From positions 8,129,501-8,193,500 of the forward strand of contig JAVTVX010000019.1 of NCBI GenBank assembly GCA_033439265.1: a stretch of DNA of 64,000 nucleotides, given 5' to 3'. Every line of letters starts with the position of its first letter. Positions within the stretch are counted from its first letter, which is position 1. Below are positions 1,482-37,321 of the stretch, piece by piece. The position numbers were made by a program, and so were the translations under genes. The stretch is from Dillenia suffruticosa (lineage: Eukaryota; Streptophyta; Magnoliopsida; Dilleniales; Dilleniaceae). Below the pieces are notes generated by a model that saw nothing but the letters and a program-made list of their open reading frames with translations, was not told the DNA's origin and did no database searches.

Positions 1482-2435
1482 AAATATTTTCACAAGTAAT
1501 GAATCCATAGAATTATGTCCTGGAAAAATATAGAAGATATATAAATTATGTTTTGCTAAATCAAATTTGCTTTCTCTTGCAATAATTTATTTATTTAGAA
1601 TTACATATTTTTTGGTGTTTATTGGAGGGGTATGAGGGAATGTTCCTAAAATTCTATTATAGAATATTAGGAATATAACATATTCTGGAGACAAGGAGGC
1701 GATATCCTATAGAAGGGGAGTGGAAACAAACTGTTAGAAAAAAAAAAGGGGGGGGCTAGAAAAATGTAAAATCATTAGAAAAGCATTCTAGATAAGAAGC
1801 ACTAAAACCTATCTGCTAATAAATCTGCACATAAAAAGGAGAGAAAAAAATAAGCACAAGGCTCAATATATGGGGAAAATAAAACTTTTTCTGATTTTCA
1901 CCAGGTCCATTATAAGTAATACATGCACAACCCCAAGGATATTGAAAAGAAAAAATAGGCTAACAAGCTGAGTCATATATCCAACTATGACCGAACGAAT
2001 CCAGGCTTTTCATTTATTGCGCTTGCTTGAGATCATGTATGTTAGGGATATGTGTCTCAATATCAGGCCTCCAAACAAGATCCACCTCTGTCCTCCATAG
2101 ACCAACTAAAACAAGGCCAGCATGATTTAAAAAGGAAAAAGCAATAACAATAATAATTCAAGTTCTTGTCCTCCTTTCCCTCAAAAGGTATATAATTTCA
2201 AAATAATATTTATTTATCTTTGGTATAATTATAAACTAATAACACTCAGATTTGGTTGAAACTCATCGGAATATACCAATGTCACAACTCACTACAATGC
2301 AAAAGTTATTCTACCAAACCCCACCCCCAAAAAAGAACCAAAACTAAAAAGGAAAAAAGAAAAGAAGAAAAATTAATAAGATCATCCGATGACGGAATCA
2401 TTTAGATATTTATATAAAACGTAGAATCAAAAGAT

Positions 2436-2627
2436 AATCAATAGATAGTTGGACTAGTGGGATAGTATTAAATTTTTTAATTAAGTTCTCGAGTTCGACT
2501 TGCGGTTTGAGTATAGAAAAAATTACGTTGGAAGAATAGTCCTCCTAAATGAGCAATTATAAGTCTCATAATTGATTAATTAGAATATTATTCTAAATAC
2601 CGATTAATATAATATTAAAAAAAAAAT
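2436..2627 (+). mobile_element. tRNA-derived SINE
   Basis: A 192-base insertion absent from the paralogous units B and D. It has a pol III A-box-like TGGACTAGTGG near 2449-2459, and a B-box-like GAGTTCGACT follows at the spacing expected of a tRNA head. It ends in an A-rich tail. It is flanked by a 13-base target duplication, AGAATCAAAAGAT at 2423-2435 and AGAACCAAAAGAT at 2628-2640 (one mismatch). The family name is unknown to me. Confidence 0.82.
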
Positions 2628-3080
2628 AGAACCAAAAGATTCACCTCACCTTGATATAGCAATCCAGAAATCCAAACTTGCTGTCACCAAGGTCTACACC
2701 ATTGTACACAATCAAATTTCATGCTAAGTATAGAACGATAGAAATAAAAAATAAAAATTTAAATTTAAAACTACAATAATTATACTGAACTTATCTATTT
2801 CATAAATTTCTTATAGTAACGACTAATCAATGCAGCCAGTAAGAAATACCTCTGAATGATTCTGGATGAGTAGAAACGTTTATGCATGGAAAGCAATCAA
2901 CTCTTTTATCCTCAGCCCTCACAAGATCAAGAACAATGTGGGCCATAAAAGGTGTGACTTGAAGAAAGAAGTCCGGGGAACGGCAAGTGTTGCATAGAAA
3001 AAAGAAAATGAAAAATTAAAACACATAATAAATCATAATGATAACAATATTAAGAGAGCCAAAACATCAACAATAATTAT

Positions 3081-3571
3081 TGTTGGTTATTGATGCCCAT
3101 TATGGGCATTTGGGTAATTAAGGAATGGGGTAACTCCCATCCTTAATTACCATTAACCAATATTTTGGTAACCCCCACCAATTAAGTGATATTGGTCTTT
3201 TTCTTCTGGGAGAGAAAACAATGGAGGAAACTCTCTTCTCCTACCTTGTGGGGTGGACAGCAGCCATGGGAGGAAACTATGATGGAGGCTAGGGTTTTGC
3301 ACAACATATTCTCTAGAGAGAGAAAATAGAAAGAGGGATGGAGATTTTCGCGTAGGAAAATCTCCCATCGTTAGACGATTCACCGGACACGAGGCTTGAG
3401 GCGTCGTGGATTTGAGGTGGTGGTTCGATTGCGTGATCACCATCCGACCGTGCGATCCGTTCGAGAGACATCGCGACACGGTGGATTTTGGAGACCGCCC
3501 AATAGAGGTATTTATCCCGTAAATTCCGATCTATTTAATTCTCGCTTCCACATGCGTGATTAAATCTAACA
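3081..3571 (+). mobile_element. Solo LTR of a copia-type element
   Basis: A 491-base insertion beginning TGTTGG and ending TCTAACA, flanked on both sides by ATTAT (3076-3080 and 3572-3576), a perfect 5-bp duplication. Units B (about 5690) and D (about 32500) show the uninterrupted site. Part of it (GATCACCATCC and GCGATCCGTTCGA) resembles the reverse complement of the LTRs at 6623 and 22688, so it is a distant relative of that copia family in opposite orientation. It contains no coding sequence; the frame at 3153-3479 is a chance ORF. Confidence 0.85.
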
Positions 3572-3899
3572 ATTATAATATAAATTTCATACCTACAACC
3601 TGCTGGCATGGGAATAAAGAATAAAACTTCCAACAGCTAAGGCCTAAACCTCAAATAGACTAGCAATTGTTATGGATGAGCCAACCTCCACAAGCACATA
3701 GCGTCTCTAAAGGCAACTCCAATGGTTGCACGGTACAAATATACATATGTTGTATAATCCAACCTGATACCACTGCGACCGAGTACTCGAAATGGGCTGC
3801 TAATCCAACCTTCAATCTTGGCGACTATCTCAGTAAGTCAATCTGACAAATCTCATCTCCATTTCTAGAATGCATTTTCAAATTTTGCTTTGTAATACT

Positions 3900-3930
3900 C
3901 TCTCCCTCTCTCTCTCTCTCTCTCTCTTTC
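3900..3930. repeat. (TC)n microsatellite
   Basis: A run of about 14 TC dinucleotides with one C interruption, at the right edge of unit A. No function is suggested. Confidence 0.9.
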
Positions 3931-3950
3931 TACACTATTCAGATTCTGAA

Positions 3951-4439
3951 TTTTATACCTAAGAAAAAAATTTCAAAAGTCCAGGGGGCCATGGCCCCCG
4001 AGACAGGACGTGGCTCCACCCCACTGCTTTGTTGTCTTAGAGAAGTCTCAGAAATATTACTTTTTTACCACATATAGTGTTGCCAGAAAATACACAATGC
4101 CATGAACTTCTCATTCAGTCCCTAAATGGTCCTGCGCATGAGACTTCAACCATTATGGGATTTAGGTTAGACAAAATGGCCTAAAATGGACTAATAAAGA
4201 GGTTTCCACTGTTATATGAACTTTTGCCTCTTGTAGCAATAGAGAGCAACATCCATATTGCGCCAAGGCCACCCTCACTAACAGCCTCTATAGAATGGAA
4301 GACCAGCAGCCCAGGAGGCTTCTTTTTTTACCTTAATCAAAGACAACTTGACTGGATCATTTATTTTTTCCACACAATTATTCTAGCATGCCCTGTATTC
4401 CTTATTATGCTTCATTCTGGTAAATGCGAACACTGCATC
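3951..4439. other. Spacer between NPC1 units A and B, nothing recognised
   Basis: AT-rich DNA. A 95-codon plus-strand frame starts at 4224, but it has no similarity I recognise and ends in unit-B DNA. The minus strand at 4330-4230 gives a short open stretch that I cannot assign to NPC1. Confidence 0.5.
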
Positions 4440-6168
4440 CACCTTAACTTCCAATCATCCTCAAATTTGCTGCTTTTCACGAGTAATGAGTCCATACGAT
4501 TAATTTCTTGAAAAAAAAAAGAAGATATGTAAATTATGTTATGCCAAATCAAATTTGATTTCTCTTGCATTAATTAATTTATTTAGAATTTACAAAAAAC
4601 ACTAAAACCTATCTTGCTAACAAATTTGTATATAAAAAGGAGAGGAAAAAATAAACACAAGGCTCAATACGTGGAGAAAACAAATTTTTTTATGATTTTC
4701 TCCGAGGGCATAAAGTAACATGCATAACCGTAAGGATATTGAAAAGAAAAAATAAGCTAACACAAGCTGAGTCATATATCCAACTATGACTCATTGAATC
4801 CATGCTTTTTATTTATTGTGCAATATTTGAGGTAGTGTACGTTGAGGGCAATATGTCTCAATATCAGGCAACTAAACCTATGCCCAACTCTAATATGATC
4901 CTTCTGTGGCCTCCATACTCCAACTGAAACATGGCTAGCATGACTTAAAAAGAGAAAAGAAAATGAACATAAAAAAAAGAAAATTTAAGTTTTTATCTTC
5001 CTTTTCCTCAAAGGTTGGTTGACACTCACTAGAATGTACCAATATCACAGCTAACTACAATTTAAAAGTTTTTCCTACAAACCCCCTCCCAAAAAAAAAA
5101 AAAAAATCTAAAGCAAAAAGGAAAAGAGAAGAAGAATAATGAATAAGATCAACAAGAATGACACGATCATGCAGACATTTATATAAAACATGAAACCAAA
5201 AGATTCTCCTCAGCTTCATATAGCAAGCCAGAAATCCAGGTTTGCTCTCACCAAGGCCTACACCACTGTGCACAATCAAACCTCATGCAAAGTGGCGAAC
5301 GATTAAAACAAAATTGAAATTTGTATTTAAAAATACAAGAATTATACTAAACTTATCTATTTCTTAAATTTCTCATTGTAATGACCGATCAATATAATAA
5401 TCAAGAAATGCCTCTAAAAGATTCACAATGAGGAACGATCAATGTAACAATCAAGAAATGCCTCTAAAAGATTCACAATGAGGAATGGAAACGTTTATGC
5501 ATGGAAAACAATCAACTCTTTTATCCCCAGCCCTCAGCAGATCAAAAGCAATAAGGGCGACAGAAGCTGTGATTAGAGTCTTGCATAGCACTAGAGTCTA
5601 GGAGAATAGCAAGTGTTGCATAGGAAAAAGCAAATGAAAAATTAAAGCAAATAATGAATCATAATAATAATACTAAGAGAGAGCAAGAATACAAACAACA
5701 ATCATAATATAAATTTCACACCTACGAACATTGAGAAAACACCACAAGCAGGCATAGAAATAAGGAATAAAACTTCCAATGGAGATAGACTCTAGTGTTA
5801 TGGATGAGCCTACCTCCACAAGCGCATGGCCTCTCTAAAGGCAACTCTAATGATTGCATAGCACAAGTATATACATGTCTATTCATGAATGGCTTTGAAC
5901 ATACACCCACATACCATTTTCTTGTGTTGCAAAGTATCTCTAATCCTACAACATCTTGCCTTGCTAAAATGTTCGGAATAAACCTTGTATTCAAGAATAT
6001 TTTAGACTTTAGAGAATTAAATTTAATTAAAATAATTAAATGAAAACTATTCAAATACGATATTAAGCTACAAGAGGAAGAAACTTAGCATTTGGTGTGG
6101 ATCCTGGTCATGAATTGAAATTTGGTCGAAAGCCTATAATCTTCAATATGAATCGTTGACAGCAATTC
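4440..6168 (-). pseudogene. NPC1-like: NPC1-like exon block, tandem unit B
   Basis: Second copy of the block. The minus strand at 5279-5200 reads GVGLGESKPGFLACYMK, which corresponds to the RPGLLARYMK-type segment of plant NPC1. 5880-5760 carries the ALELPLERP stretch preceding the SSD exon, with the frame broken afterwards. 5560-5490 carries the RAEDKRVDCFP-type segment in altered form. The left part (from about 4476) matches unit A from about 1497, and the right part (5900-6168) matches the end of unit C at 24060-24271. Multiple stops and shifts make it non-coding. Confidence 0.78.
5386..5485. repeat. 50-bp tandem duplication in unit B
   Basis: The segment starting CGATCAAT and containing GAAATGCCTCTAAAAG is present twice in succession (starts at 5387 and 5437). 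Units A and D have one copy, so this is a local duplication private to unit B. Confidence 0.85.
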
Positions 6169-6622
6169 TGATGGAGATGGAGGTAATTGTCAAATAAAGA
6201 TATATAGATAAAAATCCTAACTAAAAAAATATCCCGCGAGCAAATACAAATTTTTACCAATTAAATGATAGTAATTACCATAAGCCTATGAGAAAAATGC
6301 AATTTGGAAACAACCACACCAACAAAAGAGTTGTCCCAATTGGATACAAGCAAGAGTACAAAATAAACAATCTGCCACAGCAAAGTTTGGCAGAAAACTT
6401 TGAAATGTAATACGTTTCCAGGATGAAGGGTGCTCTTGAGATCTGCAGGAGAGAAAAAACTGCTATCAAATTTGAATTGGTTAAGAATAGGAAACAACAA
6501 AGTGACACTCTCAAAATAATTAGGTAGAAAACCTAGTAGGTAAGGCCAAATAAAACTGAGAACAGCCACACAAACAAATTCGAAACTAAGAACAGTCACA
6601 CAAACAAATTTGTAATAATATC
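6169..6622 (-). pseudogene. NPC1-like: NPC1-like exon block, unit C, left part (interrupted by copia)
   Basis: On the minus strand this reads, with shifts, YLLGFLPNYFESVTLLF followed by a Q-F-K-F-rich stretch. It aligns by eye with the YLQGYFNNVSEYLRVGPP region that follows the SSD in plant NPC1. It is paralogous to 31185-31590 in unit D. The unit is broken at 6622 by the copia element and resumes at 23215; the empty site in unit D (about 31580) shows continuous sequence there. Confidence 0.75.
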
Positions 6623-7147
6623 TGTTGGATTTATTAGACTACATGCGCATGCAAAAACGTATAAATTGAAATTTCAGAATTTATGGATAAATATATCGAT
6701 TATGAATTTCCAAAGAAATCAAATGATCTGCGAACTCCTTCGAACGGATCGCTCGATCAGGATAGTGATCACCAAATGAAACACCACCACTTTTCCATGG
6801 CACTTCAACCCAAAGTCCAATGACCCAAATAGCGGAAGGAATTTCCTACACGAAAATTCCTCAAACCCTCAATTATTCTCTCAAGTAAATTTCCATCTTT
6901 TTCATGACAATGTGCTCTCAAGACAAAATGCCCTCCATGGATTTACGTACACTCCCCTAAAGGAATGCCATTTTAGCATAATCAAGTGAAGGGGAGACTT
7001 CAAAAAAAGAGAGTCATGGATGTGGGGAGTTATTGGAGTAGTTGGTTTTTGGGGGGAGTTATGGGAGATAATTGGATTCTCCCAATAATGCCCATTCATG
7101 ATTTGAATATACCAAAAAATGCCCCAACATCGGCATAATTTTCAACA
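6623..7147 (-). repeat. Copia 3' LTR
   Basis: 525 bases starting TGTTGG and ending CAACA on the plus strand. Immediately to the right, the minus strand reads AAGTGAGAGA (about 7148-7157), the polypurine tract just before the 3' LTR. The short minus-strand frame at 6902-7099 is not a gene. Confidence 0.88.
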
Positions 7148-8324
7148 TCTCTCACTTGCACATGATGACATTTTACGTCCCTCATAATATCATAACTCAT
7201 ACGATCTATCACATCACTCTATTGGACTTTCATACAGGATTTGGTATAGTATGACCGGCGAGTATATATGCAAGCAAAGATTTCTCTATATACCTGTTAG
7301 GATGATTGAGAAACCATCGTTAGTATTAAAAGAACTCACTGTACACCAGACTCAATACAATTATATCAATCGAGTTACTTTTCTCATTGAAAGTGATTCT
7401 CAATCATTTGTTCGACTGTATATTAACTATTAGGTTTGAATTCCAATATGAATTAATATAATAGATCGACCGGTAAATACAACACCATGATATAATGTTG
7501 ATTGGTCTTTTTTTCATACTACTAATTTTCAATCTTATCTTAATTATTTTTCTAGACATATATATCGCCAAATCGAATCAACCATGGTTTCTTGGTGACA
7601 TACTAAAGTACCAATACTAAAATAAAATCTCAAAAGACAAACAAAAGTCGCAAGGGTACATGAGATCCAACCCACCCAATGGATCTCGGGTCTCACACAA
7701 TAAGAACAGGGATTAGAATCATACTATCATCTCAAATAATAACTCTCACTATCCCTTTGTCGTCTTATCATGCGTGGTATAAAACATGTATCATAGTATT
7801 ATTCTTCCATTTCTCAAAATGGTATATATCAGATTTTTCTAACACTATACAATTATAGATCTCAGTCTACATAAAATTTTATCCAGAGATTTCAAAGAGA
7901 GTATTTTAAAGATGATATCACTTAACGTAGGTGATATCTGAGATCTCAACCTGGCTTCTCACAGGCAACATGGATGTGGGTGTGTCTATGTCAGTCATGT
8001 CGTATATGAGATCATCCTGAATACATATCAAGACAACTTATGTTCTAGCAGAGCCACTCTCAAAGCCTCTTACGACTAAAAACCGTCTCATCTCCGCTTA
8101 CTCAGAGCTGGAGGTAGTCACTTGTGTGATAGAGTCGACTACGCCTGCGTGACATTTCTTTTATCATAACATGTTATATAATATATAACAATAAACAAAT
8201 GTAGGAAATAAACTTGTGATTGTATAATGCACATATATCATGTATATCAATAAGTATCAAAATTAGTATATAGTGAAAAATGTCAAATAATATGTAAACT
8301 TAATGATTTTATATATCTCACAAA
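7148..8324. other. Copia 3' non-coding internal region
   Basis: It begins at the polypurine tract next to the 3' LTR and ends where RNase H similarity starts. About 1.2 kb without a convincing frame on either strand is long for a copia 3' region. The 60-codon plus-strand frame at 7251 has no recognised similarity. Confidence 0.6.
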
Positions 8325-9600
8325 GGAATCTCTCACAATGGATTTGATAAAGTGATCAGCCACCATACTATAAAAAAAATATATTTAGACATCACTACAC
8401 CCTTTTCGGTAGTATCTCTCACAAAATGGTATCTAGTATCAATGTGTTTAGTTTTACCTTGATATTTAGAGTTTAAGTTATAGACAATGTCGACCTAATT
8501 ATCATTATAAATCATTATTGGCCTCCCACTTTCTACCACAATTCTTAAGTCATCCAGAAATCTCCAAAACCAAACACTCTCCTGAACCGCCATTGAGTAT
8601 GCCACAAGCTCAACCTCTATTATAGATAAATATACATAGATTTGTTTTTTACTCTTCTAAGATATGGTACCGTTTATTGAGTAAGATAATAATAACTGAT
8701 ATCGATTTGCGTCTATCCAGATCACCACCCTAATCGGCGTCTGAATACCCAATAAGACGCAAATCACCTCCTTCATAACGCAAAGAGAGATCTACAGTTC
8801 TCTTGAGATATTTCAGAATTCTTTTCAGTGCTCTTCAATGACTCTTTCCAGGATTCGATTGATATCTACTTATCAGATTGACTATAAAAAAATGTTTGGT
8901 TATGTATGCCTCATTGCATATATAAAACTGCCCATTGCGCTGGTATAAAAGATTCTATTCATCTTCTTAATTTCTTCTTAAGTAATGGGCACATATTAAG
9001 GATTAGGTCTTCGCCTTTAACGATAAGAGTATCTAATGGGTTGTAATCGCTCATCTCGAAATATTCAAGAATCTACCTTATGTAATACTGTTGTTAAAGA
9101 GTTAACATTCTTCTCGAGCGATACCTCTGGATCCTTACCCGAGAATGAACCAAGTCTTACCCATGTCTTTCAGATTAAAATTCGACAATAACCATATTTC
9201 AACGGTTATTATATACTCTCTGTTATTTCCATCTAATAGAATGTCACGAACATATAAGAATATGATCACAAAAGATTCATTAGAACGTTTTAGACAAACA
9301 CAATGATTATTCTCGATTATTATAAAACCATTAGATATCACCATATTGTGAAATTTTAGATACCACCATCTGGATGACTGTTTTAGGTTGTATGTTAACT
9401 TCCAAAGTTAACAGATTTTATTCACCTGACCTACTAGAATAAATCCAGAGGGTTGTTCTATATAGATCTCCTCATCTAAACTTTTATTATGGAAGGTGGT
9501 CTTTACGTCCATCTGATATAACTCTAAATCTATATTCACGATAATCACTAAAAAGTTAAACGGATCAAAGTAAATTGGATTACGACTTCCCGATAGTTCA
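8325..9600 (-). pseudogene. Copia reverse transcriptase and RNase H (RVT_2)
   Basis: From high to low coordinates the minus strand gives: the start of the RVT_2 domain near 9512-9450 (FHN, then LDEEIYIEQPSGF); a 69-codon open stretch 9344-9135 with CVCLKRSNESFV and YVRDILLDGNN; and the RNase H C-terminus near 8460-8390 (KTKHIDTRYHFVRDTTEKG). The catalytic YVDD box is YVRD (CGT at 9246-9248), so one metal-binding aspartate is lost. Several in-frame stops lie between the blocks. It would have copied element RNA into DNA in cytoplasmic particles; it is now inactive. Confidence 0.88.
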
Positions 9601-9939
9601 AATCCTTAATCTGTGTATAACCATGGTTGCCAGATGGACCTTATACCTTCCCATTGATTCGTTGGTCTTTCCTTGACCTTGAGAACCTTCTTGTTCTCAG
9701 TGGTTCTTCTACTCTCAATCAAATCAACTAGATCCTTGAGAATCTATTTGTTTCCAATAGCCTTTCTACCCTCAGGAAAATCAACTAGGTCTCAGACACT
9801 GTTGATTCTTATCGACTCATTCTCTTCATCTATAGCCTTCAATAAGTAGTTCTTCGCAAAAACCCTCGAGAGCCTCTAAAACTGTTTTAAATTTCTCATC
9901 GTCCTTAAGAGTCACAATAAGGGTCTCACTCTCAATCGG

Positions 9940-10400
9940 GAAGTGACGTTTAAGTACGCGTCCTTAATATTTTTACAAGGGGAGAACCTCTTTACCTCTA
10001 GATGGATTGCCCCCATTAGAACCAAAATCCATAATGGGTTCTTGTGTCCCACCGTTGGGCTTACCAAAGTCACTAAATTCATCTGTTTTATAGAAGGTAA
10101 AGTCCAGATGGATTTCACCTCTCGATGAATCGCTCTCATTAGGACAAAAATCTATAATGGATTCTTGTATCTAGCTGTAAGGCTCACTTGAGTTACTAGA
10201 CTCATCTATCTTATAGAAGGTAAAGTCCTGATTGATTTCACCTCTCGATGGATCACTCCCATTGGGATTAAGATCATTAATCGGATCTTTGGTCCCGCTA
10301 CTGGGCTCAACTGAGCTACTAAGCTCATCTATCGAATAGAAGGTTGAATCTTAATTAACTTGATCTCTTTTAGAGAAATCATCCTTAAAGGATGTGGTAT
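9940..10400 (-). repeat. 123-bp (41-codon) repeats in the copia integrase-RT linker
   Basis: ACCTCTAGATGGATTGC (9994), ACCTCTCGATGAATCGC (10117) and ACCTCTCGATGGATCAC (10240) recur at exactly 123 bases, with surrounding sequence also conserved (TAGAAGGT, GGTTCTTGT, CTCATCTAT). 123 is a multiple of three, so the repeats keep frame. They lie between the integrase and RT blocks, where copia polyproteins have a poorly conserved linker. Confidence 0.85.
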
Positions 10401-11212
10401 TACAAGACTCAATCTCAGTAACAGTACTGTTTGTATGCTCACCTAAGAACACATGCCCTTTGAAGTGTTCTAAAATTTTATTAAAGATACATTTCTTTTC
10501 TCATGGGCCTAACTTGCCGTGTAGATGCGAGAAATCATTATCATACACGGTGTAATCCCACAACCTCAAGTAGCTAAGGTTAGCTAACTCCCTCTCCAAA
10601 TCTCAAATGGGGAACTGACTGCGGATTTTGATAAGATATAGTTGAGAACGTAGATTGTAGTCAATAAAACATCTCTCCAATGAGAGATAGACAAATTGGT
10701 CTATACCATTATAGATCTCACCATCTCCAATAAAGTCTTATTTCTCCTCTCAGCTATTCCATTCTATTGAGAAATAACAAAAATAGTCAGTTGTCTCATA
10801 ATATTATTTTTGAAACAGAGCTTTTTGAATAGTTCTGACAAATACTCGTGCCTCTGATTGGTTCTAAAAGTTTTTACTCTCAAATCTAATTGATTTTAAA
10901 GCTCGTTAATAAACCTCCTGAAGTATTCCAATGTTTTAGATTTATTCGAGATCAGATAAATTTAATCAAAACTCATATAATCTTCTATAAACATAATAAA
11001 AATATATAGATCAGTTTCAGATTCTCATACTCATATGGTCACAGATATCAGAGTGGACCAATTATAATGGAGTCCTAGCTCTCATTGAATTATCAAATGG
11101 TTTTCTTGTAGTTTTACCGGCCAAGCAAAAACTCATATACGGGCAACTCGAATAGGATTAGAGGGTCCAACAAACCACTTGCTGATAATCGATTCATCTT
11201 CTCTTACCCTAT
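10401..11212 (-). pseudogene. Copia integrase core
   Basis: Minus-strand reading gives LVHSDICD near 11050, an FIEDYMSF stretch in place of the usual FxDDxSRF, TNQRHEYLS near 10850 in place of the RSDRGGEYLS-type catalytic stretch, and NGIAERRNKTLLEMV near 10760 (a very well-kept copia signature). Thus at least one catalytic aspartate is changed (D to N) and stops occur. The sequence left of the CACTA insertion at 11212 continues the GAG-pre-integrase reading frame found at 21675-21872. Confidence 0.87.
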
Positions 11213-12090: not shown

Positions 12091-12349
12091 AATTTGCCTG
12101 CTCACCCAACCTCATCAACAATATTATCATCCAAATCGTTTTTAATATAAAATTTAAACAATCTATACTCATAATTATAACTACCTATTCAATAAGATCA
12201 AAAAATTAAAAATTTAACAAGCAATCATATTTATAATATCAAACCAAAAAACAAAATCAAAACTAAATATCGAATTATCAATAACCATACATTAAAAAAA
12301 AATCAATATAACAGTAACATAACAGTTCACAATTTCAAGTATGACCTTC

Positions 12350-24271: not shown

Positions 24272-24284
24272 CACTACAAAAAAA

Positions 24285-26520: not shown

Positions 26521-26910
26521 GAGGGGAGAAAAATAAATATTGAAGCGATTGAGGTATATATTTTTTTATCGCATTTATTCTTTTTTTTATCCCTTGTTCC
26601 TAGTGTGTATGTATGTATGTTGTATTTTCATAAATTGTAATAGTTATAAATTATTTTTACATTATTTTGTGACTCAATGTAAAAAAAATTATATTTATTT
26701 TTTATTATTTTGCATAAATAGTATGTGTTAATAATTTCTATTAACGTTTTTATATTTGTTAAATTATCTTAATATATGTTAATATTTTTTAAATATTTTG
26801 TTATTAGATGTTAATTATTTTTTATTAATGTTTTTTTTTTATCAATATCATCTACATTTTGTTAATACTTTTCTTTATTAATATTTTATAAATTTTATTT
26901 TTGTAAGCAG

Positions 26911-27650
26911 CGACAATGCAAAATGAAAGAGATTGGATGTATAATAAGAATTTACCTGATCATCGTGATTTAACTTATGAGTTTATTTATGGGGTGAAAT
27001 AATTTTTGAATTTCGTTACTAGTAAGGTTGAGTTTATGGATGGAAATAAGTTAAAGTGTTGGTGTAGAAAGTGTGGCAATGGTAAATTTCATGTATATGA
27101 TAAAATTAAGAAATATCTTTGTAAACCGTTTATATCTGATGAAAAGTATGTGCGAAATATGTATTTTTCAGTTAGAATAGATCACAATTATTATGATCAG
27201 TTAAATCCATATCAGTAGATGATATTTGATGCAGCGGATCAAAATTTTGTACCCCAATCAAACTATGCAAGTTCTAGTTTTGCACCAACAAATGAAGATG
27301 TACATACAAGTTCAAGTGCATTATGCATCATATCCTAGTTTGAAAATTGATTGGTGAGCTGTTTGTAAAACAAAAGTATGAAAAAAAATTGAGAAACGTT
27401 GGGAAGACATAGCATATCAACAAGAGAAAGTTGCCAACACATTTCAGACTGAGGAATATATTATTCCAACATTACGAGATCCACGTGAAGTAGTGATAGA
27501 TATAAATCAAACTAAAATTCATGAGGTTAGCCATGAAGAATCTAATTTTGAGACAGATGATGAAGATGAGAATGAAAATGAGGATGAATTTGATATTGAA
27601 GAATTTGATAATGAGGATGATGATGATAATGATGACTTTGTTTTTTGATC
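26911..27650 (+). pseudogene. tnp2: Remnant TNP2 transposase, ends only
   Basis: 26917-27225 encodes the Transpos_assoc N-terminus (ERDWMYNKNLPDHRDLTYE, a stop at 26998-27000 in the context GVK-stop-FLNF, then CRKCGNGKF and DQLNPYQ followed by TAG). Directly after about 27320 the reading jumps to the C-terminal DUF4216 region (KIEKRWEDIAYQQEKV, then TEEYIIPTLRDP) and the acidic tail ending near 27648. Compared with 14553-18320 about 2.5 kb of coding sequence is missing (core TNP2, DUF4218, most of DUF4216), a typical internal deletion. No transposase activity is possible. Confidence 0.88.
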
Positions 27651-27864
27651 GTTAGTAAGTGTTGTTTTTTTAAGATTTATTATAATTGTCTAACACTAGA
27701 TTAAATTTTATTTAATTGTTTGAATGTGAAAATATATTTAAATTTGTATATTTCGTTTCTCAATTTGAATGTTATATTTAGTGTCTCATATTTCATTTTC
27801 GAAATATTATTTGCTAATACGCTATATTTTTTTTGAATAGATCATTTCAGATGATAATTTAAAT

Positions 27865-29975
27865 ATGGTATATTTCTTCATATACTTTATTATATTTTTT
27901 ATAAACATGCAATTTTCATTGCTTGCAAGACCAAACTCTTGTGACAGTATCGACGTGGAGGGTATAGACGATCTTCTAATACAAGTCCAAACTCTTCAGC
28001 GTCACCTCAGTTTCAGCTGCACCTTCCCATGCCCGTTCGCTTTCTACTGATGCACCTTCATCATCTCTTTCAGTTGCACCTTCGGTTGTACCTTCAATAC
28101 AAGATTCACACGTTTAGGGGGAAGATACGCGAGAGGTGATATCCCCTTGCAAAGATTCGTAAGTAGTAAATTTTGAAATATTATCACAATAGTTTTTTTA
28201 TTTATATAGCTGATGAGTTTATTTAACTATTTTTTTTACTAACTATTTTTTGTTTCTAATTTTATGATAAATTCACAAATTCTGTGTGTGTTATTCATGA
28301 GTTGAATAAAATCATCAACAGCCATTCGGGAGGGGCATTGATATCTTACACAAGTACTCCAAATGATATCAAAGAGTTATGGTGGAGAGAATTCAAGGTA
28401 AATTAGGCCTCTAAGTTTAAATATAAAAATATGTATATAATTTAAATATAACTAATTGTATTTTTATTTATTGCAGCGAAAGTTCACTTGGGATGAGACC
28501 GAGGAGCTTGAAATAAGAAAAATTTTTAAGAAAAAATACAGTCATCACATCCGAGGTATACTAAATTATGCAAAGACTAACCGAAGTAAACCAAACTGTA
28601 TCACCGAAAATAATTGGCTTAGGATTTTAAACTTCTGGGATTCCGATGAGAGCTGACGGAGGAGTGAGCAGAATAAAAAAAATCGATCTTATAATTCTGG
28701 GGAATCATCTGCTACTTATACGGGAAGCTCAATCAATATTGATGAGTATAGAAATAAAATGGTAATTTGGTTAAATTACTATTTTTTTTAAATTTAATTC
28801 ATTTATTTTTTCATTCTTTTATTATATCTAACAGTGTTTTTTTTTAGGCCAAGGAAATGGGATTCCAGCCATCATTTATAGAGACTTTCGTAAGAACTTT
28901 CTAGAAAAAAGACATGACCTGGAGTGGGGAGAGAATTAGAGCGGTTATGGTATGTAATTTCAAAATTTTTAATTATTTTATAGACACTCTGCAACAAATA
29001 TTTTAGCATATTATGCTGAATCTATCATAACAAAGTTAGATAATGAATTTATTAAATTTATCTATTCCAAAATTTGTTTCACTATTTAAATTGATTTTTC
29101 ATTTCTAATTTATACATTTTTATCTGATCATTATTAATTAAAATTTGGGAATACATAATATCAATTTTGTTATGTCATTTTCGAATGGTTGGTTTATTAT
29201 GTTACATACTAGCATAATTTTTTCCTTTATTTGATCTGTTATAGTTTTAAACTCCTAATAGTAGTTGAATTTTAATTTCAATTAGAGCACTCCTCATTAT
29301 CTAAGTATCATTCTAATGGATAAAGCAACTAAATACATAAATAGAAGTATATTTAATTTCAATTCCATAAGTCTATTAAATTTGTAATATTTGATTCACA
29401 TATTAATTTTTGTATCTTATTGTTACTGTCAATAGCTTAATGAGAAATACAATTTTGTATTTTGATTTTCTTTGTTGGATATTTTATTACATTGTTAAAC
29501 TATTAATTGATACTTTTATTTCTTTTATTGGATATTTTATTATATTATTATTTTAATTTTCTTCTAATTTCTCTTATGACAATACAAAAAAAATATGATC
29601 AGTTTGTACTGAAAAATTCCAGTGATAGTGATGATATTGCTATGTCTGAGCCATCTATTAATAATATGGTTTTATGGCTCAAGGCTACTGGTGGAGCAAA
29701 GCAGGGAAGAGTATTTGGGATGGGCTCGTTGAGTAGGACTTGCAGAATTAGTGGTCAATATTTTTTGGGCTCGTTGAGTAGGACTTACAGAATCAGTGGT
29801 CAATATTTTTTAACTCAGACACCAGTAAGAATAGAATTAATGCAAATGAACTAAGAGCTGAGCCACTTGAAGGCACAGTTAGCACAAAAAGACAATGAAC
29901 TTCAAGCCATACATGCAGAACTCAGGCGAAGAGACAATGAATTTGAAGGGTTTCCGCACAATAGAGACTTATAAT
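27865..29975 (+). pseudogene. CACTA second gene (Transposase_24 / tnpA-like)
   Basis: Blocks in order: 27907-28050 (serine/proline leader); 28265-28399 (TNSVCVIHELNKII, WWREFK); 28477-28760 (KFTWDETEELEIRKIFKKK, NCITENNWLRILNFW, one TGA, then SSINIDEYRNKM); 28849-28955 (EMGFQPSFIETFVRTF); 29569-29975 (WLKATGGAKQGRVFGMGSLS, then a coiled-coil-like AQLAQKDNELQ). Introns end at recognisable AG sites, e.g. before 28477. The order equals the gene at 12350-14290. Two in-frame stops are seen, so it is probably defective. Confidence 0.78.
29722..29811 (+). repeat. 45-bp in-frame tandem duplication
   Basis: The segment beginning GGGCTCGTTGAGTAGGACTT occurs twice with period 45 (29722 and 29767), three substitutions or fewer. 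It duplicates 15 codons around the GSLSRT motif, which is single in the related gene at 12485-12745. Confidence 0.9.
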
Positions 29976-30059
29976 GCAGTATCTTCAGTTAGTCTCCGCT
30001 TCAAATCTGATTCCCCCTTTTCAATCTCCTCTAAATGATGGTAATGGTTATGACATATT

Positions 30060-30152
30060 TGGTGATGATGAGGGTGATGATGGCGGTGACGGTGACGGTG
30101 ACGGTGACGGTGACGGTGACGGTGACGGTGATAGTGATGGTGATGGTGATAA
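30060..30152 (+). repeat. GGTGAC hexanucleotide minisatellite
   Basis: About eight perfect GGTGAC copies (30081-30130), flanked by GATGAT/GGTGAT variants. On plus it encodes an acidic G-D run equivalent to the (CAT)n tract near 12350-12420. In the minus strand it is a histidine-rich frame, which I take as a shadow. Confidence 0.88.
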
Positions 30153-30479
30153 TATTTCTTGAGACAGTTTTTTATTATTTCACGCTTACATTTAAATATG
30201 GTTGTTATTATTATTTGATTCATACTGTTAGATATTTGATATTCTGTTACTTATTTATTACTGTTTATTATTATTTCATGACGATGGTAGTGTTTTTTCA
30301 ATTATTATTTGATTGATACTAGTAGATGGTTAGTTGTTTGGATGAGTAGAAACTGGATAAATTTCATATTATTGACTGTTAGATGATACCCTGGATGGTT
30401 TGTTGATGATGATGTTGGATGTTTACTTCATAAATTGGTTGGCTGAGTAGAGAGGAATATGATATATAGGGAAAATTGG

Positions 30480-31181
30480 TGCAAAAAAAAACAATCCAAA
30501 TTTTTTTGTTGCAATTTTTCTAGATTCGTCGTAAAATTCGTCGCTAATTCTGATATTCGTCGCAAAATTTGTTGCTAAATTTTTCACACTTCGTCGCAAT
30601 ATTAGTCACTAAATTCATCGCCGAATTTGTCGCAAATTAATGATAAATTATACGACAAATAAATATTCGTCGCACTTATGCGATGAAAACAATTTGTCGC
30701 AAATTTCCGACGAAATTATTTTTCATCGCAAAATTTGTTGCAAAAATTAGTGACAAAAAATTTTTTGTTAAAGATTTGCAACAAAAAAATTCGTCGCCAA
30801 TTTTGCGACAAATAATTATTCGTCTCCAATTTGTGATAGATAATATTCGTCGCAAAATTGGACGCAACATTGCAACAAAAAAATTTTTGATGCTAATTTT
30901 TCCGACAAATTTTGCGAGAAATAGATGTGCAACAGATATTTTTCAACGCAAAATGTGTCGGAAATTTACAACAAAAAATTTTTTATTGTTAAATTTTGTG
31001 ACGAAATTAGCGACAAAATAATATATATCGTTAATTTTGCGACAAATATGATATTTTTTGTCGCAAATATTTGCGACGAGTTATTTTTTGTCGAAAAATT
31101 CGTCACAAATTTATTTAGCGGCTAATTTTTCTCAAATTTTTGTTGCAAAATTTGTCACAAAAATATTATTTTTTTGTAGTG
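30480..31181. repeat. Right subterminal repeats of the deleted CACTA element
   Basis: Dense TTCGTCGCAAAATT / GCGACGAAAT motifs from about 30520 to the terminus at 31181. ORFs on both strands here are repeat-derived. Confidence 0.86.
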
Positions 31182-31184
31182 AGC

Positions 31185-32830
31185 TATTATGATGGAAATG
31201 TAAGTAATTGTCAAATAATGATAAATAGATAGAAATCCTAAATAAAATAAATATCCTACTAGAAAATACGAATTTTGACCGATTAAATCATAGTAATTAC
31301 CATAGGCCTACGAGCAAAATGCAATACGGAAACAACCACCGCTCCAACAAAATAGAGTTATCCCAATTTGATACAAGCAAGAGCACAAAATAATCAATCT
31401 GTCACAGTAAAGTTTGGTAGCCAACTTTGCAATTGAGATCTCCAGAAGAGAAATGACTCCTATCAAATTTGAATTGGTTAAGAATAAGAAACAACAAAGT
31501 GACACTCTCAAAATAATTAGATAGAAAACCGAGTAGGTAAGGCCAATCAGAAATTGAAAACAGCCATGCAAACAAATTCGTAATAGAATCATTCATCGTT
31601 AACCGTGAAAAATTTCTCTGACTCGGAAAAAAAGCCTGAACTGTTGAAGTAGCATAAATGGTTTGTATTATTTGATTTTGGGCGGTGGTAGATTGGTGTC
31701 AGCATCAAGGAAGGGAAAAGCTTCAACAGGAACTTGTATCCTGCAGCTGAAAATGACACCATCCATTAAGTAAAATGTGGAATGACACCATCCATATAGG
31801 TTTTCCCCCAAAAGTAAATAATTTCAAAGTAACATTTATTTATCATTGCTATAATTATAGACTACTAACATCCAAATTTGGTTGAAATTCATTGGAATAT
31901 AACAATATCATAGCTCAATACAATGCAAAAGTTAATCCCCCAACCCCCAAGAAAAAAAAACGAAAGCAAGAAAGGAAAAGAGAAAAAAAGAAAAATGAAT
32001 AAGATCAATAAGAAGGATAGAATCATTCAGACATTTATATAAAACATAAAACCAAAAGATTCCCCCACTTTCATATAGCAAACCAGAAACCCAAGATTGC
32101 TCTCACCAAGGCCTACACCATTGTACACAATCAAATTTCAGGCAAAGTAGTGAAGGAAGGAAATAAAAGAAAATTTTGAATTTAAAACTATAATAATTAT
32201 ACTGAACTTATCTATTTCATAAATTCCTCATAATAATAACCAATCAATGCAATAATTAAAAAATACTTCTGAAAGATTCTAGATGAGAAGGGAAAACATT
32301 TATGCATGGAAAGCAATAAACTCTTTTATCCTCAACCCTCAGAAGATAAAAAACAATGAGAGCCACTAAAGGTGTGACTTGGAGAAAGAAGTCCATAAGA
32401 ACAGCAAGTGTTGTATAGGAAAATGCAAATGAAAAATTGAAGAACGTAATGAATCATACTGATAATAATACCATGAGACCAAAAATACCAATAACAATTG
32501 TAATAAAAATTTCACAATTGCAAACATTGAGAAGACACCACATGCTGGCATCAGAATAAGGAATAAAACTTCCAATAGCGAAGGCCAAAACGCCAGATAG
32601 ACTAGCTAGTGTTATGGATGAGCCAACCTCCACAAGCGCATAGCCTCACAAAAGGCAATTCTAATGCTTGCATGGTACAAGTACACATGTTGTCTATTCC
32701 AACCTTATACCCAAAGAAAAAAGTATTGCATATCAGAATATCACTTTTTTTTTTTTGAAGCTTAATTGCTAAAGTACAAAGAATGAATTGCATATAATAT
32801 GTAAGGAGGAATTAAATTCCACCGGGAGAA
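31185..32830 (-). pseudogene. NPC1-like: NPC1-like exon block, unit D (best preserved SSD exon)
   Basis: The clearest copy. On the minus strand, 32740-32610 reads VGIDNMC, then ALELPFVRL; after a frameshift 32625-32550 reads VEVGSSITLASLSG, then VLAFAIGSFIP; 32570-32520 continues as MPACGVFSMFA. 32395-32295 gives DFFLQVTPLVALIVFYLL, then EDKRVYCFPCIN. 32150-32075 gives GVGLGESNLGFLVCYMK, and 31590-31440 gives YLLGFLSNYFESVTLLF. These are the sterol-sensing domain and following segments of plant NPC1, a late endosomal/vacuolar membrane sterol transporter. At least two frameshifts disrupt the SSD exon. Confidence 0.9.
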
Positions 32831-33970
32831 ACAACACACCTCTTTTTAGGTGACAAAGAGCACTTGTTGATTTACGATGAATTTTGCTATAAATGAAAGA
32901 AAAACATGTGAACATTAAGACTAGTAAATGTATAATGAGTCTTATATAATTAGTTCAAACAAATGTTTAAATTACTAATTTTATTACTTTATTTTTATTC
33001 TGAGTGTCTTTTCCCAATATTTATGTGCCAAATTTGCAAAAAATAAAGCATTTGTCTGGACTTGCCATCAAATTTTAGTTTCAATTCATTATGTAGCAAA
33101 CAAAAAAGAAAGACATCACAAAGATTGTTCACGATAAATAGTAATTATTGAGATATAAATGGCCCAATTGAATCACATCTCTAAAAATGTCTTCATAAAT
33201 AGTGAATTGCAATATCTAATTTGAGGCAAAGAAACAGAATTTGTAGTTTGAAGGATAAAAGAGCAACACCAAGTGATTGAAAATTTTCACAGGTTCATTC
33301 AAACAACTTAGATATAGACAAATCATATGAAAGTTGATTTAATCAAATTAAAATAAACAATCACCTTGTGATGTCTTTATTCTTCAAAATTCAGTGTAGT
33401 CCAAAAAAAACTACTCAGTAGAGAATTTCTTAAGGCAATAACAATACTTTTGTTGTTGACTCCTGTTTGGACAATTCAATCCACGTTTCTCTTGATTAAC
33501 ATTCTCTCCCAAGTGTCTCGGTCTTTTCTTTACATTGTCAGTGCTACTACTTGTAGGGTAAGTTACAAATAGGCATCAATGGCACTTGTAAAAAGTAATC
33601 TAGTATCGTTTCAATTGACACACTGCAATTGTACTCATGAATCTAAACTTGTCTTATGCAGCACTTAATGTATCTAAGACCACAATTGATATATTATACT
33701 TAAACCACAGGCACAATCTAAAATATATAAAAAAAAAAAAAGATAATTATCGGATATGCCAGAGAAGCACAAATTAGAGACAAATATTTTTTATGGAAGA
33801 GTCATGGATAATCATATGAAAAAATTGTACTTATAATAGTGACCTTCACATCAAATCATAATCCCAAGAAGTTGCCTATACACCATTGGATTTCCACAAA
33901 CATGTTGTTTAATACGTAAAAAGCAGCCTTCAAGATAGCTACATCTAAAATCTCTTATAGTTACGGATAG
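32831..33970. other. Intron-like DNA of the NPC1 locus, nothing recognised
   Basis: AT-rich sequence between the SSD exon (unit D) and the preceding exon at 34.0 kb. No open frame, repeat or transposon end is seen. Confidence 0.5.
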
Positions 33971-33994
33971 AAAACTTCAAAAGTAGATAGAGAA

Positions 33995-34137
33995 GTGGTA
34001 CTTACAGCCAACACAAGAAATGGAAGGATTTCCATTATGATTACTGTAGATTTTGCTCAATGGCACCAAAAATTCCAACTAATCAAAGGACAGATAGGAT
34101 CACAAGTGCAACTCCCCAATGACCTAGCAAAAACAAA
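33995..34137 (-). pseudogene. NPC1-like: NPC1-like exon (first SSD segments)
   Basis: The minus strand reads GVALVILSVL, a TGA, LVGIFGAI, then after a one-base shift IIMEILPFLVLA, followed by GTAAGT as a splice donor at about 34008-34003. Plant NPC1 has GVVLVMLSVLGSVGFFSAI then VKSTLIIMEVIPFLVLAVG at this place, directly upstream of GVDNMC, which is the start of the exon in unit D. So exon order and phase are right, but one stop and one frameshift are present. Confidence 0.88.
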
Positions 34138-35756
34138 ATCTAGAAAACCAAACATTTAAAATTATTAACAAAGCAGAATTTGTTTCAATTCCATGATTAT
34201 ACAACCAAAATGTATCACAACAATCACATTTCTCATAAATTTCACCGGGGAATGCTAACACACATTGCAATACTAGGGATTCTAATCTTAAAATTTATCA
34301 AATATTTTTTAGAGTTTTACTATATATTCAGCATTGTCACATATATAATCTAATGTTTTATGATTTTAGATTCACATACTCATTTTTTATTTTATTTAAT
34401 TTGTATTTCTTTAGAGTTACAATTTGTAAATAAAAGTGTAGAATCAAATTATTGAATATGAAATGTTGAAATTCTGATAGATGTTGAGATCCATATCTTT
34501 ATTCTTTACACGTTTTGTTTTCTTGATTGTTGAGTTTTACAATTGTTAAATTAAATCTTAGTTTCATGCACTAATTGACATAGTCTAATATTTTTCTTTT
34601 TTTTTTCTTTCACATATTAATTTTTTAGTTACTTATCAAATTTTTTACAATTCTTTTCTTTTTAGGATGCTAAGATTAAAGATCCTATGATTCAAAAGAG
34701 ACTACTCATGCTCATGTTATTTTTATACTTTTTCTTTTGTTTTAAGGAATAATTTCAACATCAACTTCCTTGCATCAAATAAATATATTATTGCATTCAT
34801 TTGAATTCTAGAGGAAAATGATGGTCCTTCATATTTAACGTTATTGCTTCAACATGGTGCACTCATTGGAAGTTTCAAATGTCCGAAAAGAGGAAAAAGC
34901 ATAGCTTGGTTATACATCTCACTAAAATAGACAATTAATCATCTTTACTTGCTGCGCGACTTATCAATGTTTGCAAGCCTAAAAGACCTTGGCAAATATG
35001 GAAATGTTTTAGTTTCAAACTTGATAAATCATTAATATCCTCTCATTCAATAAAAAATAAATATGAAAGGGACAAATGCAGGTAACTAATTATACCTGGG
35101 ATGAAATGTAGAAAGAAGATAAACGAGATGCATTGCTCAAAGTAAGAGATATGTAAGCAAACATCACAAGATAGCTTACCTGAAAAGGTTAAACATTTTC
35201 AAGTTAATATATATATGTATGTATGATTAGAAAGGGAGCCATATCTGTCTTTAAATAACAAAATTTCTCAAACATACATCTTAAGAAATAAGTAATCATT
35301 TTAATGGGATACCCTGATAACACAATTGGTTGACAAGGAGTGAAAAGTCAAAATTTTAACACAATTAATGTAGAGTACTTCAACAAAATAGTAAAATAAT
35401 AGCAAACTTCTTATTTTTTAAATGACTTACTACCTAAATTAACTCTTAATAGGATTTTCATAATTAATATGAGCACAATTCAGCATGATAAGTGAATGGA
35501 GTGACGAGCAAGAGAGTTAAAATCATGTACACTAGTCAATTTGCCCAAAGATTACAATAATAATAGTCGTCATGTAGTTTGGATTAAAAAAAAGCAAAAA
35601 AAAAAAGAAAAAAAAAGATCTTTTGAATTAGTATCAAGAAATTTAGAGATTTAATCCGAGGTGCATTAAAGACAGGGTTGGATTTATCAATAAGGGGGAG
35701 AGAGCCACCCCCACCTTGTAGCTCAATTAACCTTTGGAACAGATGAAGGATAAGGA
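34138..35756. other. Intron-like DNA of the NPC1 locus, nothing recognised
   Basis: About 1.6 kb of AT-rich DNA without frames, tandem repeats or transposon termini, lying between two NPC1-like exons. Confidence 0.5.
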
Positions 35757-35880
35757 TTACAATAATAATAAACCCACCAACATGGTTATGGTATCTGGAG
35801 TACTTTCACTTTTTAATTTTTCTTCAATTGAGCTCCCTGATGAAAAAGCAAAGGTCAAATTTCTGGATTGACTATAGATA
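35757..35880 (-). pseudogene. NPC1-like: NPC1-like exon (luminal loop to membrane segment)
   Basis: The minus strand reads QSRNLTFAFSSGSSIEEKLK then SESTPDTITMLVGLLLL. It corresponds to the QSRNLTLSFSSESSVEEELK region just before the first SSD helices. The open frame runs further right to 36014, but that part shows no NPC1 similarity and is probably intron. Confidence 0.88.
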
Positions 35881-36769
35881 GATGCTCCTCCTATCACGGA
35901 AAAAAAAGTAAATTTATTTAAATGGCAGAACCTATATGTTGAACCAATACTACAAAAAGAAATTTGATGGTAGATGAGTATAACCAAACTCACACAATCT
36001 AGTAGACTGCTCATTGGAAAAGACTAATGAAATCAAAGGTTAAAGCATATTATTTTAGCGACAGATATTTGTTCTCTCAAAGACAATTAAAATATCAAAG
36101 TTATATGCAAGATCCCCCCAATGTTGTCACCAAACTTATGCAAGACACTGTGATGTTCTGACTAAAGGTAATGCAACCAAAAAAATTAAAGGTAATGCAG
36201 GATTCACCGAGTCCAAATAACATGTGAGTGCATAGTAATAGAATTTTGGCCCATGACCAAATGTTTCAAAAAGGATAATAAGCAACTCCCGAGTCTGTGC
36301 TTCTAACCATATTCATGGAGAGAAAAAAGATGTCTACATAATAGAAATCATCCATTGGACAGACAGCGTCACAGTCATGTCACAACAATAATGGTTGTAT
36401 GACACTTGCAAACAGGGGTTGAAAGTCTAATTTGGGACTCAACTATCAAAACCAATTGGGAAAAAAAAAATTGCTAGAATTTACTCCTCCATCCTTATAT
36501 ACCGAGTGTTCAGGCGAAAAAAAATCATTCCCTTCCAAGCATCAAAAGGGGATGAAACCATCACCAAAGGGGTGCAATTGAAAGTTTAGAAACAAAACAC
36601 AATAAAGAAAATACAAAAGAAGTATGAATATAAACGAGAAAAATGAACGGTGTCCACCATCTTGAAGCAAAGAAGAGTCTGTCAAGGTACATAATATTTC
36701 AAAAGCATAATTGCATTACACAAGCTAAATAATAACCGAAAGCACAAGTAACAAAGAAAAAATCATTAC

Positions 36770-37180
36770 TAGTTGAATCTTTACTAATTAAATGAATGTC
36801 TTCTCCCATTACACAAACTTTAGAGCTTCAACATTTTCGTTATCAACCACATTGTTTACCGGATAAGTTACTATAAATGCAAAAGCCTGATTCTGAGACA
36901 TCCGTGGAGTAACCAAACACCGTGATTTAAATTTCCATCAGGTAAAGGAAAGAAGTATCTTGGAATAATTATTTCTAGAGAAACCTCCTAATGTAGTGCT
37001 CAGATCAAGGGAGGCTTTGAAAGCATTCATATAGTCCTCAGCACAAGTATAATGCTGAAAGAAGCATGCATAAACTAACGTATTTATTGAAGAATGAGAA
37101 TGCTATTTTGCTTGGAATACTGCTACAAAGATGGATGCAATGTTGTCTGCAAACTCATGAGTTCTTAAGCTATTTCTTTC
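36770..37180 (-). pseudogene. NPC1-like: NPC1-like exons (luminal domain)
   Basis: Two exon remnants. 37100-36955 reads ACFFQHYTCAEDYMNAFKA then SLDLSTTLGGFSRNNYSK. After an 80-odd base intron ending in CAG, 36875-36790 reads AFAFIVTYPVNNVVDNENVE, a TAA-caused break, then WEKTFI. Plant NPC1 has YCFQHYTSAE, LDPSTALGGFSGNNYS and ASAFIVTYPVNN in the same order. The context is the second luminal domain; breaks mark it as a pseudogene. Confidence 0.9.
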
Positions 37181-37321
37181 AGAACAAGTATAATGCTGAA
37201 AGAAGCATGCATAAACTAACGTGGTTATTGAAGAATGAGAATGCTATTTTACTTGGAGTACTGCTACAAAGATGGATGCAATGTTGTCTGCAAACTCATG
37301 AGTTCTTAAACTATTTCTTAT
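37040..37321. repeat. 141-bp tandem duplication of an NPC1 exon end
   Basis: Two adjacent copies (37040-37180, 37181-37321) differ at a handful of positions. Each holds GCTGAAAGAAGCATGCATAA and GTTGTCTGCAAACTCATGAG. The unit covers the 5' part of the exon with the FFQHYT motif plus upstream DNA. The 85-codon plus-strand frame at 37066 is a shadow of this duplication. Confidence 0.93.

What the first reader, a model, noticed from the sequence alone, without database searches (positions are those of the whole stretch)
1482..37321. Tandem amplification of an NPC1 exon block
Four minus-strand copies of the same NPC1 sterol-sensing-domain exon block lie in a row (units A to D), while earlier exons of the gene (34.0-37.3 kb) occur once. 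All copies have frameshifts or stops. Partial, repeated exon blocks are unusual: either a gene expanded internally by unequal crossing-over and then died, or the array sits beside a working NPC1 gene. It may yield antisense or small RNAs against the functional NPC1.
Basis: partly seen in the sequence, partly recalled or inferred. Interest (0 to 1): 0.72.

Follow-up and report, generated by a model that had tools for sequence, protein, structure and literature searches.

The report
Dead NPC1 fragment, amplified after death
A broken piece of a plant cholesterol-transporter-like gene (NPC1) appears to have been copied several times in a row after it had already stopped working, and transposons later cut the row apart; it is a well-resolved but ordinary piece of plant genome decay.

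Summary
The window lies in a 596-Mb genome (C19:8129501-8193500). On its minus strand is an intron-bearing NPC1 pseudogene. It matches the middle of a gene on contig C20 whose exons look open (C20:652050-660457). Exons before the sterol-sensing block occur once (37968-32704). A three-exon block then recurs as units D, C, B and A; C keeps only about 60 bp of the first exon.

The interpretation changes. (1) A Copia retrotransposon (6623-23217) cuts unit C, and a CACTA transposon (24272-31181, TSD AGC) separates D from C; a sister copy on C16 lacks both insertions. (2) The same array exists on C16:8.31-8.41 Mb. (3) All six near-complete units (A, B, D and three on C16) share three first-exon indels (-10, -8, +7 bp) absent from C20 and C17, so the block was out of frame before amplification. 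(4) Exon and intron diverge alike between D and its C16 partner (K 0.136, 0.138).

Amplification preceded the C16/C19 split. No working NPC1 gene was found within 114 kb. The 12 NPC1 DNA pieces there share one strand; small RNAs were not tested. This is a tandemly amplified duplicated pseudogene: low interest.

The parts
32704..37968 (-). Single-copy middle part of the NPC1 pseudogene. Exon remains at about 37096-36945, 36914-36737, 35870-35760, 35179-35087 and 34130-33988, with stops and frameshifts in some of them.
   Evidence: DNA match to C20 652050 to about 657363; frameshift-tolerant protein alignment.
31433..32703 (-). Unit D: block exons E1 (from 32703, acceptor AG kept), E2 and E3 to 31809, then a jump over C20 658292-660018, then 31783-31433 with the next exon (NNTNHLC).
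   Evidence: with its upstream intron 86.9% to C16:8369919-8371305.
31182..31432 (-). First half of the ~510-bp filler joining unit D to unit C (split by the CACTA element).
   Evidence: 85% to 6393-6161; C16 lacks the CACTA at this site.
24272..31181 (.). CACTA (En/Spm) transposon between D and C; termini CACTACAAAAAAA...TTTTTTTGTAGTG, target-site duplication AGC/AGC.
   Evidence: about 68% to the nested CACTA at 13.0-14.9 and 17.9-18.3 kb, inverted.
23954..24271 (-). Second half of the filler, then the first ~60 bp of E1 of unit C (24014-23952).
   Evidence: 77% to 6163-5814; the remnant has the same spacing as A, B and D at the -10 and -8 bp deletions.
23211..23953 (-). Downstream part of unit C (= C20 659506-660259), ending at the Copia insertion.
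   Evidence: 72.8% to C20, 83.4% to C16:8334391-8335137.
6623..23217 (-). Copia LTR retrotransposon (LTRs 6623-7149 and 22688-23217, 89.5% identical, K 0.114), TSD ATATC/GTATC, with a nested CACTA element whose right end is at 21671 (left end not found).
   Evidence: LTRs and flanks; RVT_2 and Transposase_21 hits, gag_pre-integrs just below its cut-off.
6398..6581 (-). 3' end of unit C beyond the Copia element (= C20 660272-660456, where the match breaks off inside an exon).
   Evidence: 83.2% to C20.
5885..6397 (-). Second filler (513 bp) joining the end of unit C to a point about 5 bp inside E1 of unit B.
   Evidence: 5 of 5 genome hits, the query itself included, lie in the C19 and C16 arrays.
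4474..5884 (-). Unit B: E1 without its acceptor, E2, E3 and the following introns (5857-4617 = C20 657414-658680).
3772..4473 (-). 702-bp stretch between units B and A, origin unknown.
   Evidence: Only its self match among the loci fetched.
1482..3771 (-). Unit A: E1 with acceptor AG, E2, E3 and introns (3769-1702 = C20 657364-658841), with two inserted repeats (3081-3567 and 2436-2614).
   Evidence: grouped with D and C16u1 at 100% support.
1..1481 (.). End of a third CACTA element (GTAGTG at 1481) with subterminal tandem repeats; truncates unit A.

Best explanation
An intron-bearing (unprocessed) copy of the C20/C17-type NPC1 gene lost its reading frame. Later, a segment from about 5 bp inside E1 to the middle of an exon near C20 position 660457 was duplicated in tandem through a ~510-bp filler junction. 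The filler-to-E1 junction is the same in four units (C and B here, u2 and u3 on C16), so it most likely arose once. Further copies followed, most simply by unequal crossing-over (inferred). The whole locus was then duplicated onto a second chromosome (C16/C19), most likely in a genome or large segmental duplication (inferred). Since then it has decayed without clear constraint and been split by Copia and CACTA insertions. It most likely does nothing now (inferred; no expression data).
For: Intron-level collinearity with the C20 gene over 37968-31809. Indels of -10, -8 and +7 bp in E1 shared by A, B, D and C16 u1, u2, u3 (6 of 6 near-complete units), absent from C20 and C17; the remnant in unit C has the same spacing at the two deletions that it covers. 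The tree separates the six units from C20/C17 (100), pairs D with C16u1 (99), then adds A (100). Units with the native exon start (A, D, C16u1) separate from units that start at the filler junction (B, C16u2, C16u3, 73), so duplication preceded the C16/C19 split. D vs C16u1: exon K 0.136, intron K 0.138; C20 vs C17: 0.086 and 0.176. By codon position (1, 2, 3), E1 differences between the two unit groups are 0.118, 0.207, 0.206, against 0.030, 0.030, 0.167 for C20/C17. Copia and CACTA insertions are absent from the C16 sites. The upstream part also lies collinearly on C16, in pieces up to 8408317.
Against: Gene conversion between units could have spread the lesions after duplication; E1 divergence between the groups (0.176) is not unusually low, but ancient conversion cannot be excluded. 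Exon/intron K ratios between the groups are 0.66 to 0.96 rather than 1, and E2 shows a slight third-position excess between them (positions 1, 2, 3: 0.156, 0.172, 0.199); introns carry more alignment noise. Intron K of the array to C17 (0.24-0.27) overlaps the K between unit groups (0.22-0.27), so K alone does not separate the gene duplication from the tandem duplication. By the stop-codon measure the C16 pieces fetched (220 residues) show no in-core stop; indels are not counted there. The filler's origin is unknown. Unit A has no clear C16 partner in the pieces fetched. That C16/C19 are homeologous chromosomes was not tested with neighbouring genes.
Confidence: 0.9

Rival explanations
1. One reading: a working NPC1 gene expanded internally by unequal crossing-over of an exon block and then died.
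For: Tandem direct copies within one gene context; exon/intron K ratios between unit groups are below 1 (0.66-0.96).
Against: All six near-complete units share the same three E1 indels that C20 and C17 lack, and exons diverge like introns between D and C16u1.
Confidence: 0.03
2. A live array was formed first, and the lesions were homogenised among units by gene conversion.
For: Tandem repeats do convert (general knowledge); exon/intron K ratios between groups are under 1.
Against: E1 divergence between groups (0.176) equals E2 (0.176) and lies within the range of the introns (0.145-0.237); no third- over second-position excess in E1.
Confidence: 0.04
3. Transposon capture: NPC1 exons were picked up and multiplied by CACTA elements (Pack-type transduplication).
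For: CACTA ends abut units A, C and the filler after D.
Against: The units lie outside the CACTA and Copia termini; the element between D and C has its own AGC duplication; C16 lacks it at that site. The array continues the single-copy gene in order.
Confidence: 0.02
4. The array is a functional source of small RNAs or antisense transcripts against the C20 or C17 NPC1 gene.
For: 12 perfect runs of 21-43 nt with the C20 gene region, one of 43 nt inside E2 (C20:657744-657786), and 18 with C17. Pseudogene-derived siRNAs are a known phenomenon (PMC5187791, passages seen).
Against: All 12 NPC1 pieces at E <= 1e-6 are on one strand, so no hairpin; no clear constraint; no expression data available here.
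Confidence: 0.03

Closest known systems
Duplicated (unprocessed) pseudogene of plant NPC1
   Same: Keeps introns, carries frameshifts and stops, and open-looking paralogs exist on C20 and C21.
   Different: A three-exon block was tandemly amplified after the loss of frame.
The C16:8.31-8.41 Mb array in the same genome
   Same: Same kind of units, same filler junctions, same E1 lesions, same upstream part.
   Different: Less deleted in units 1 and 2, contains extra nested partial duplications (C20 658521 back to 657996), and lacks the Copia and CACTA insertions at the sites tested. Only 23 kb of it was fetched by place.
C17:518416-536929 NPC1 copy
   Same: Also carries stop codons in NPC1 exons.
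   Different: Nearly full length, no block amplification seen, no E1 indels.

Membership tests
Duplicated (unprocessed) pseudogene | Introns of the parent retained | tested here: met
   Collinear with C20 introns and exons, 71-83% over 12 blocks.
Duplicated (unprocessed) pseudogene | Disabling lesions in the coding frame | tested here: met
   Shared -10, -8, +7 bp indels in E1; in-core stops at probe residues 666 and 738 in the window.
Duplicated (unprocessed) pseudogene | A functional paralog exists | tested here: inconclusive
Processed pseudogene | Introns absent | tested here: not met
   Introns between E1, E2 and E3 present in all six near-complete units.
Functional NPC1 transporter | Open frame from the N-terminal domain to the last transmembrane helices | tested here: not met
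   253 of 1279 probe residues in the window, range 519-801; no convincing N- or C-terminal exon in 114 kb of C19 (one 15-aa plus-strand match at C19:8127919-8127963, E 2.3, not judged).
Pack-type CACTA gene capture | Host exons lie inside the element's termini | tested here: not met
   Units lie outside 24272-31181; C16 lacks the insertion.
Small-RNA-producing pseudogene | Inverted copies or overlapping antisense transcript | tested here: inconclusive
   No inverted NPC1 copies, 0 of 12 pieces on the plus strand at E <= 1e-6; transcripts cannot be tested here.

The most novel reading that the evidence does not exclude
The array, kept on both the C16 and C19 copies since they split, is transcribed and supplies small RNAs or decoy RNA that tunes the C20-type NPC1 gene through the retained 21-43-nt identities, so that amplification of an already dead block was selected for RNA dosage.
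Probability: 0.03. Interest if true: 0.6.

Novelty: new member of a known kind. Interest (0 to 1): 0.17.

Why it matters
Its value is mainly methodological. The shared lesions and the C16 sister array put the events in order: loss of frame, tandem amplification, chromosome-level duplication, transposon insertion. The locus shows that repeated exon blocks in a dead gene need not mean that a live gene expanded. It also warns against annotating these exons as NPC1 genes.

Tried and rejected
Rfam search of the whole window: no family at gathering score. The 6623-7141 / 22688-23208 repeat was first taken as part of the NPC1 unit and rejected when LTR-type ends, a 5-bp duplication with one mismatch and Copia domains showed it to be LTRs. 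A possible exon copy at 33592-33044 (score 67 against plus-strand controls of 39-52) was not pursued: the C20 alignment makes that stretch intron. An attempt to test neighbouring-gene synteny with window 52374-53991 failed because it is a transposon (45 matches from 40 scored of 6900 candidates). A guess at the species from genome size (kiwifruit; paper listing only) was dropped, since contig numbers and sizes did not settle it. Two plus-strand matches were set aside: a 15-aa NPC1-like match just left of the window (C19:8127919-8127963; E 0.64, 2.3) and a 50-bp match of a TC-rich repeat at 51379-51428 (E 5e-5; below the cut-off). Literature searches: (10 of 76 papers listed; 9 of 9 listed; 3 of 3 listed), all listings and abstract starts only, plus passages of PMC5187791. 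None listed reports a tandem NPC1 exon-block pseudogene; this is a limited search of one open-access library.
Full report
Where it is. The window is C19:8129501-8193500 of a held 596-Mb assembly of 37 contigs. The gene content is that of a plant (inferred); the species was not established.

What the observation shows. Self-comparison gives collinear direct repeats among 1.5-6.6 kb, 23.2-24.3 kb and 31.2-32.7 kb. Of 10 translated pieces, 3 hit Pfam Patched or Sterol-sensing, the latter just below its cut-off. A hand-joined 86-aa piece found Patched structures rather than NPC1 ones. I checked that recalled probe two ways. A 216-aa part of it finds solved NPC1 structures at E 1e-57, and genes on C20, C17 and C21 of the same genome match it along its length. 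The window in turn matches the C20 gene at DNA level. NPC1 is therefore secure.

The parent. The C20 locus (exon matches 646955-665749, plus strand) covers 1132 of 1279 probe residues with no stop in the core of any exon-like match. C21 covers 1150, also without in-core stops. C17 covers 1084, with one in-core stop and further stops visible in its exon matches. The window aligns with C20 through introns as well as exons: 37968-31809 corresponds to C20 652050-658292 in four collinear pieces, 72-77% identical. It is thus an unprocessed copy, and only of the middle of the gene. No convincing N- or C-terminal exon was found in 114 kb of C19 around it. The one candidate is a 15-aa plus-strand match just left of the window (E 2.3), which I did not judge.

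The units in parental coordinates. D: native intron, E1-E3 to C20 658292, a jump to 660018, then to 660418. C: about 60 bp of E1, a jump to 659506, then to 660259 and, beyond the Copia element, 660272-660456. B: 657414 to 658680. A: 657364 to 658841. Between D and C, and between C and B, lies a filler of about 510 bp that is not matched in the parent. A genome search with it found 5 matches, all in these two arrays. In C and B the homology to E1 begins about 5 bp inside the exon and the splice acceptor is gone. A and D keep the native start with AG; C16u1 keeps the native start but reads AC.

Transposons. The units are separated by transposons. A Copia element (6623-23217) has LTRs 89.5% identical (K 0.114) and flanks ATATC/GTATC. 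A CACTA element is nested in it (right end 21671; left end not found). A second CACTA lies at 24272-31181 with AGC on both sides. A third CACTA ends at 1481. The joined flanks of the Copia and of the second CACTA align across the site with C16 sequence that lacks the element; at the CACTA site C16 has an extra 30-bp repeat, and both alignments have small indels.

The sister array. A genome search with the 834-bp D block gave 12 matches: five on C19 (the query included), four on C16:8313874-8370826 (three near-full, one partial), one each on C17 and C20, and a 49-bp match on C29. C16 carries the same filler twice. Its upstream single-copy part lies collinearly in pieces up to 8408317. D with its upstream intron matches C16 unit 1 at 86.9% over 1.4 kb. 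Of this locus I fetched 23 kb by place.

Order of events. Ten sequences were aligned: eight near-complete blocks and two C16 partial blocks that do not reach E1. A, B, D, C16u1, C16u2 and C16u3 all share a 10-bp deletion, an 8-bp deletion and a 7-bp insertion in E1; C20 and C17 have none of these. The net change is -11 bp, so the frame was lost before the first duplication. The tree of the eight near-complete blocks separates the six units from C20/C17 (100), pairs D with C16u1 (99), adds A (100), and places B, C16u2 and C16u3 together with weak support (73; 65 within). This grouping agrees with the junction type. Both groups have members on C16 and C19, so the first duplication preceded the C16/C19 split. 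Intron K values are: array against C20 0.26-0.32; array against C17 0.24-0.27; between unit groups 0.22-0.27; C20 against C17 0.176; D against C16u1 0.138; Copia LTRs 0.114. The overlap of the C17 and between-group values means that K alone does not separate the gene duplication from the tandem duplication; the shared lesions and the tree do.

Constraint. D against C16u1 shows exon K 0.136 and intron K 0.138. The C20/C17 pair shows 0.086 and 0.176. By codon position (1, 2, 3), E1 differences between the unit groups are 0.118, 0.207, 0.206, against 0.030, 0.030, 0.167 for C20/C17. For E2, read in the frame shown, they are 0.156, 0.172, 0.199 between groups and 0.149, 0, 0.104 for C20/C17. The array evolves much as unconstrained DNA. 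Against this, exon/intron ratios between groups range from 0.66 to 0.96, so a weak early constraint, or alignment noise in the introns, cannot be excluded. E1 is not less divergent between groups (0.176) than E2 (0.176), which speaks against recent conversion spreading the lesions.

Mechanism. Shown: the filler-to-E1 junction is the same in four units, and the other side of the filler follows an exon break near C20 660418-660457. Inferred: an initial non-homologous joining with filler, then unequal crossing-over between the repeats, then a genome or segmental duplication. Not explained: the source of the filler, the different B-to-A junction (702 bp, no match among the fetched loci), and the lack of a clear C16 partner for A.

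Small-RNA idea. All 12 NPC1 pieces in 114 kb of C19 at E <= 1e-6 are on one strand, so no hairpin is evident. Perfect matches of 21-43 nt to the C20 gene exist (12 runs; 18 to C17; none to C21). Without expression data this stays possible but unsupported.

Verdict. A tandemly amplified duplicated pseudogene with its events put in order; ordinary in kind.

Noticed in passing
41634-43664 (+): An uninterrupted 676-codon frame with hAT dimerisation (E 3e-23), RNase-H-like and BED zinc-finger domains: an intact-looking hAT transposase gene lying between the two direct repeats 38743-40203 and 47962-49435.
   Followed up: partly
38743-49435: Direct repeats of about 1.45 kb (87% identical, K 0.147) flank a gag-bearing stretch (Retrotrans_gag at 47339-47761, minus): probably an LTR retrotransposon with a nested hAT element; its exact ends and target-site duplication were not settled.
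   Followed up: partly
61429-63817: A short CACTA element with CACTACAAAAAAA...TTTTTTTGTAGTG ends and a TTA/TTA duplication, probably non-autonomous.
   Followed up: partly
1-1335: Tandem array of a ~184/213-bp unit with CACTA-type subterminal motifs.
   Followed up: no
37038-37319: A 141-bp tandem duplication, 95.7% identical, at the first NPC1 exon remnant, much less diverged than the exon-block units.
   Followed up: no
3081-3567: A ~487-bp repeat inserted in unit A, 97% and 94% identical to copies at C19:8116919-8117409 and 8110514-8110990 (about 16 and 22 kb to the left), with copies at 85-87% over 263 bp beside C16 units 1 and 2: a short, apparently recently active element.
   Followed up: partly
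56914-58537: Tandem array of a ~212-bp unit, about six copies.
   Followed up: no
C17:518416-536929 (L017, L011, L018): The C17 partner of the C20 NPC1 gene also shows stops in exons, so of the C17/C20 pair only C20 looks open.
   Followed up: partly
L012:8419-8463 (C19:8127919-8127963, +): A 15-aa match to the C-terminal NPC1 motif SGITLTKL on the opposite strand, 1.5 kb left of the window (E 0.64, 2.3): chance, or a stray inverted exon remnant.
   Followed up: no
C11:14707255-14707412: Two short matches (98 and 43 bp, 84% and 93%) to the single-copy NPC1 part of the window on another contig.
   Followed up: no
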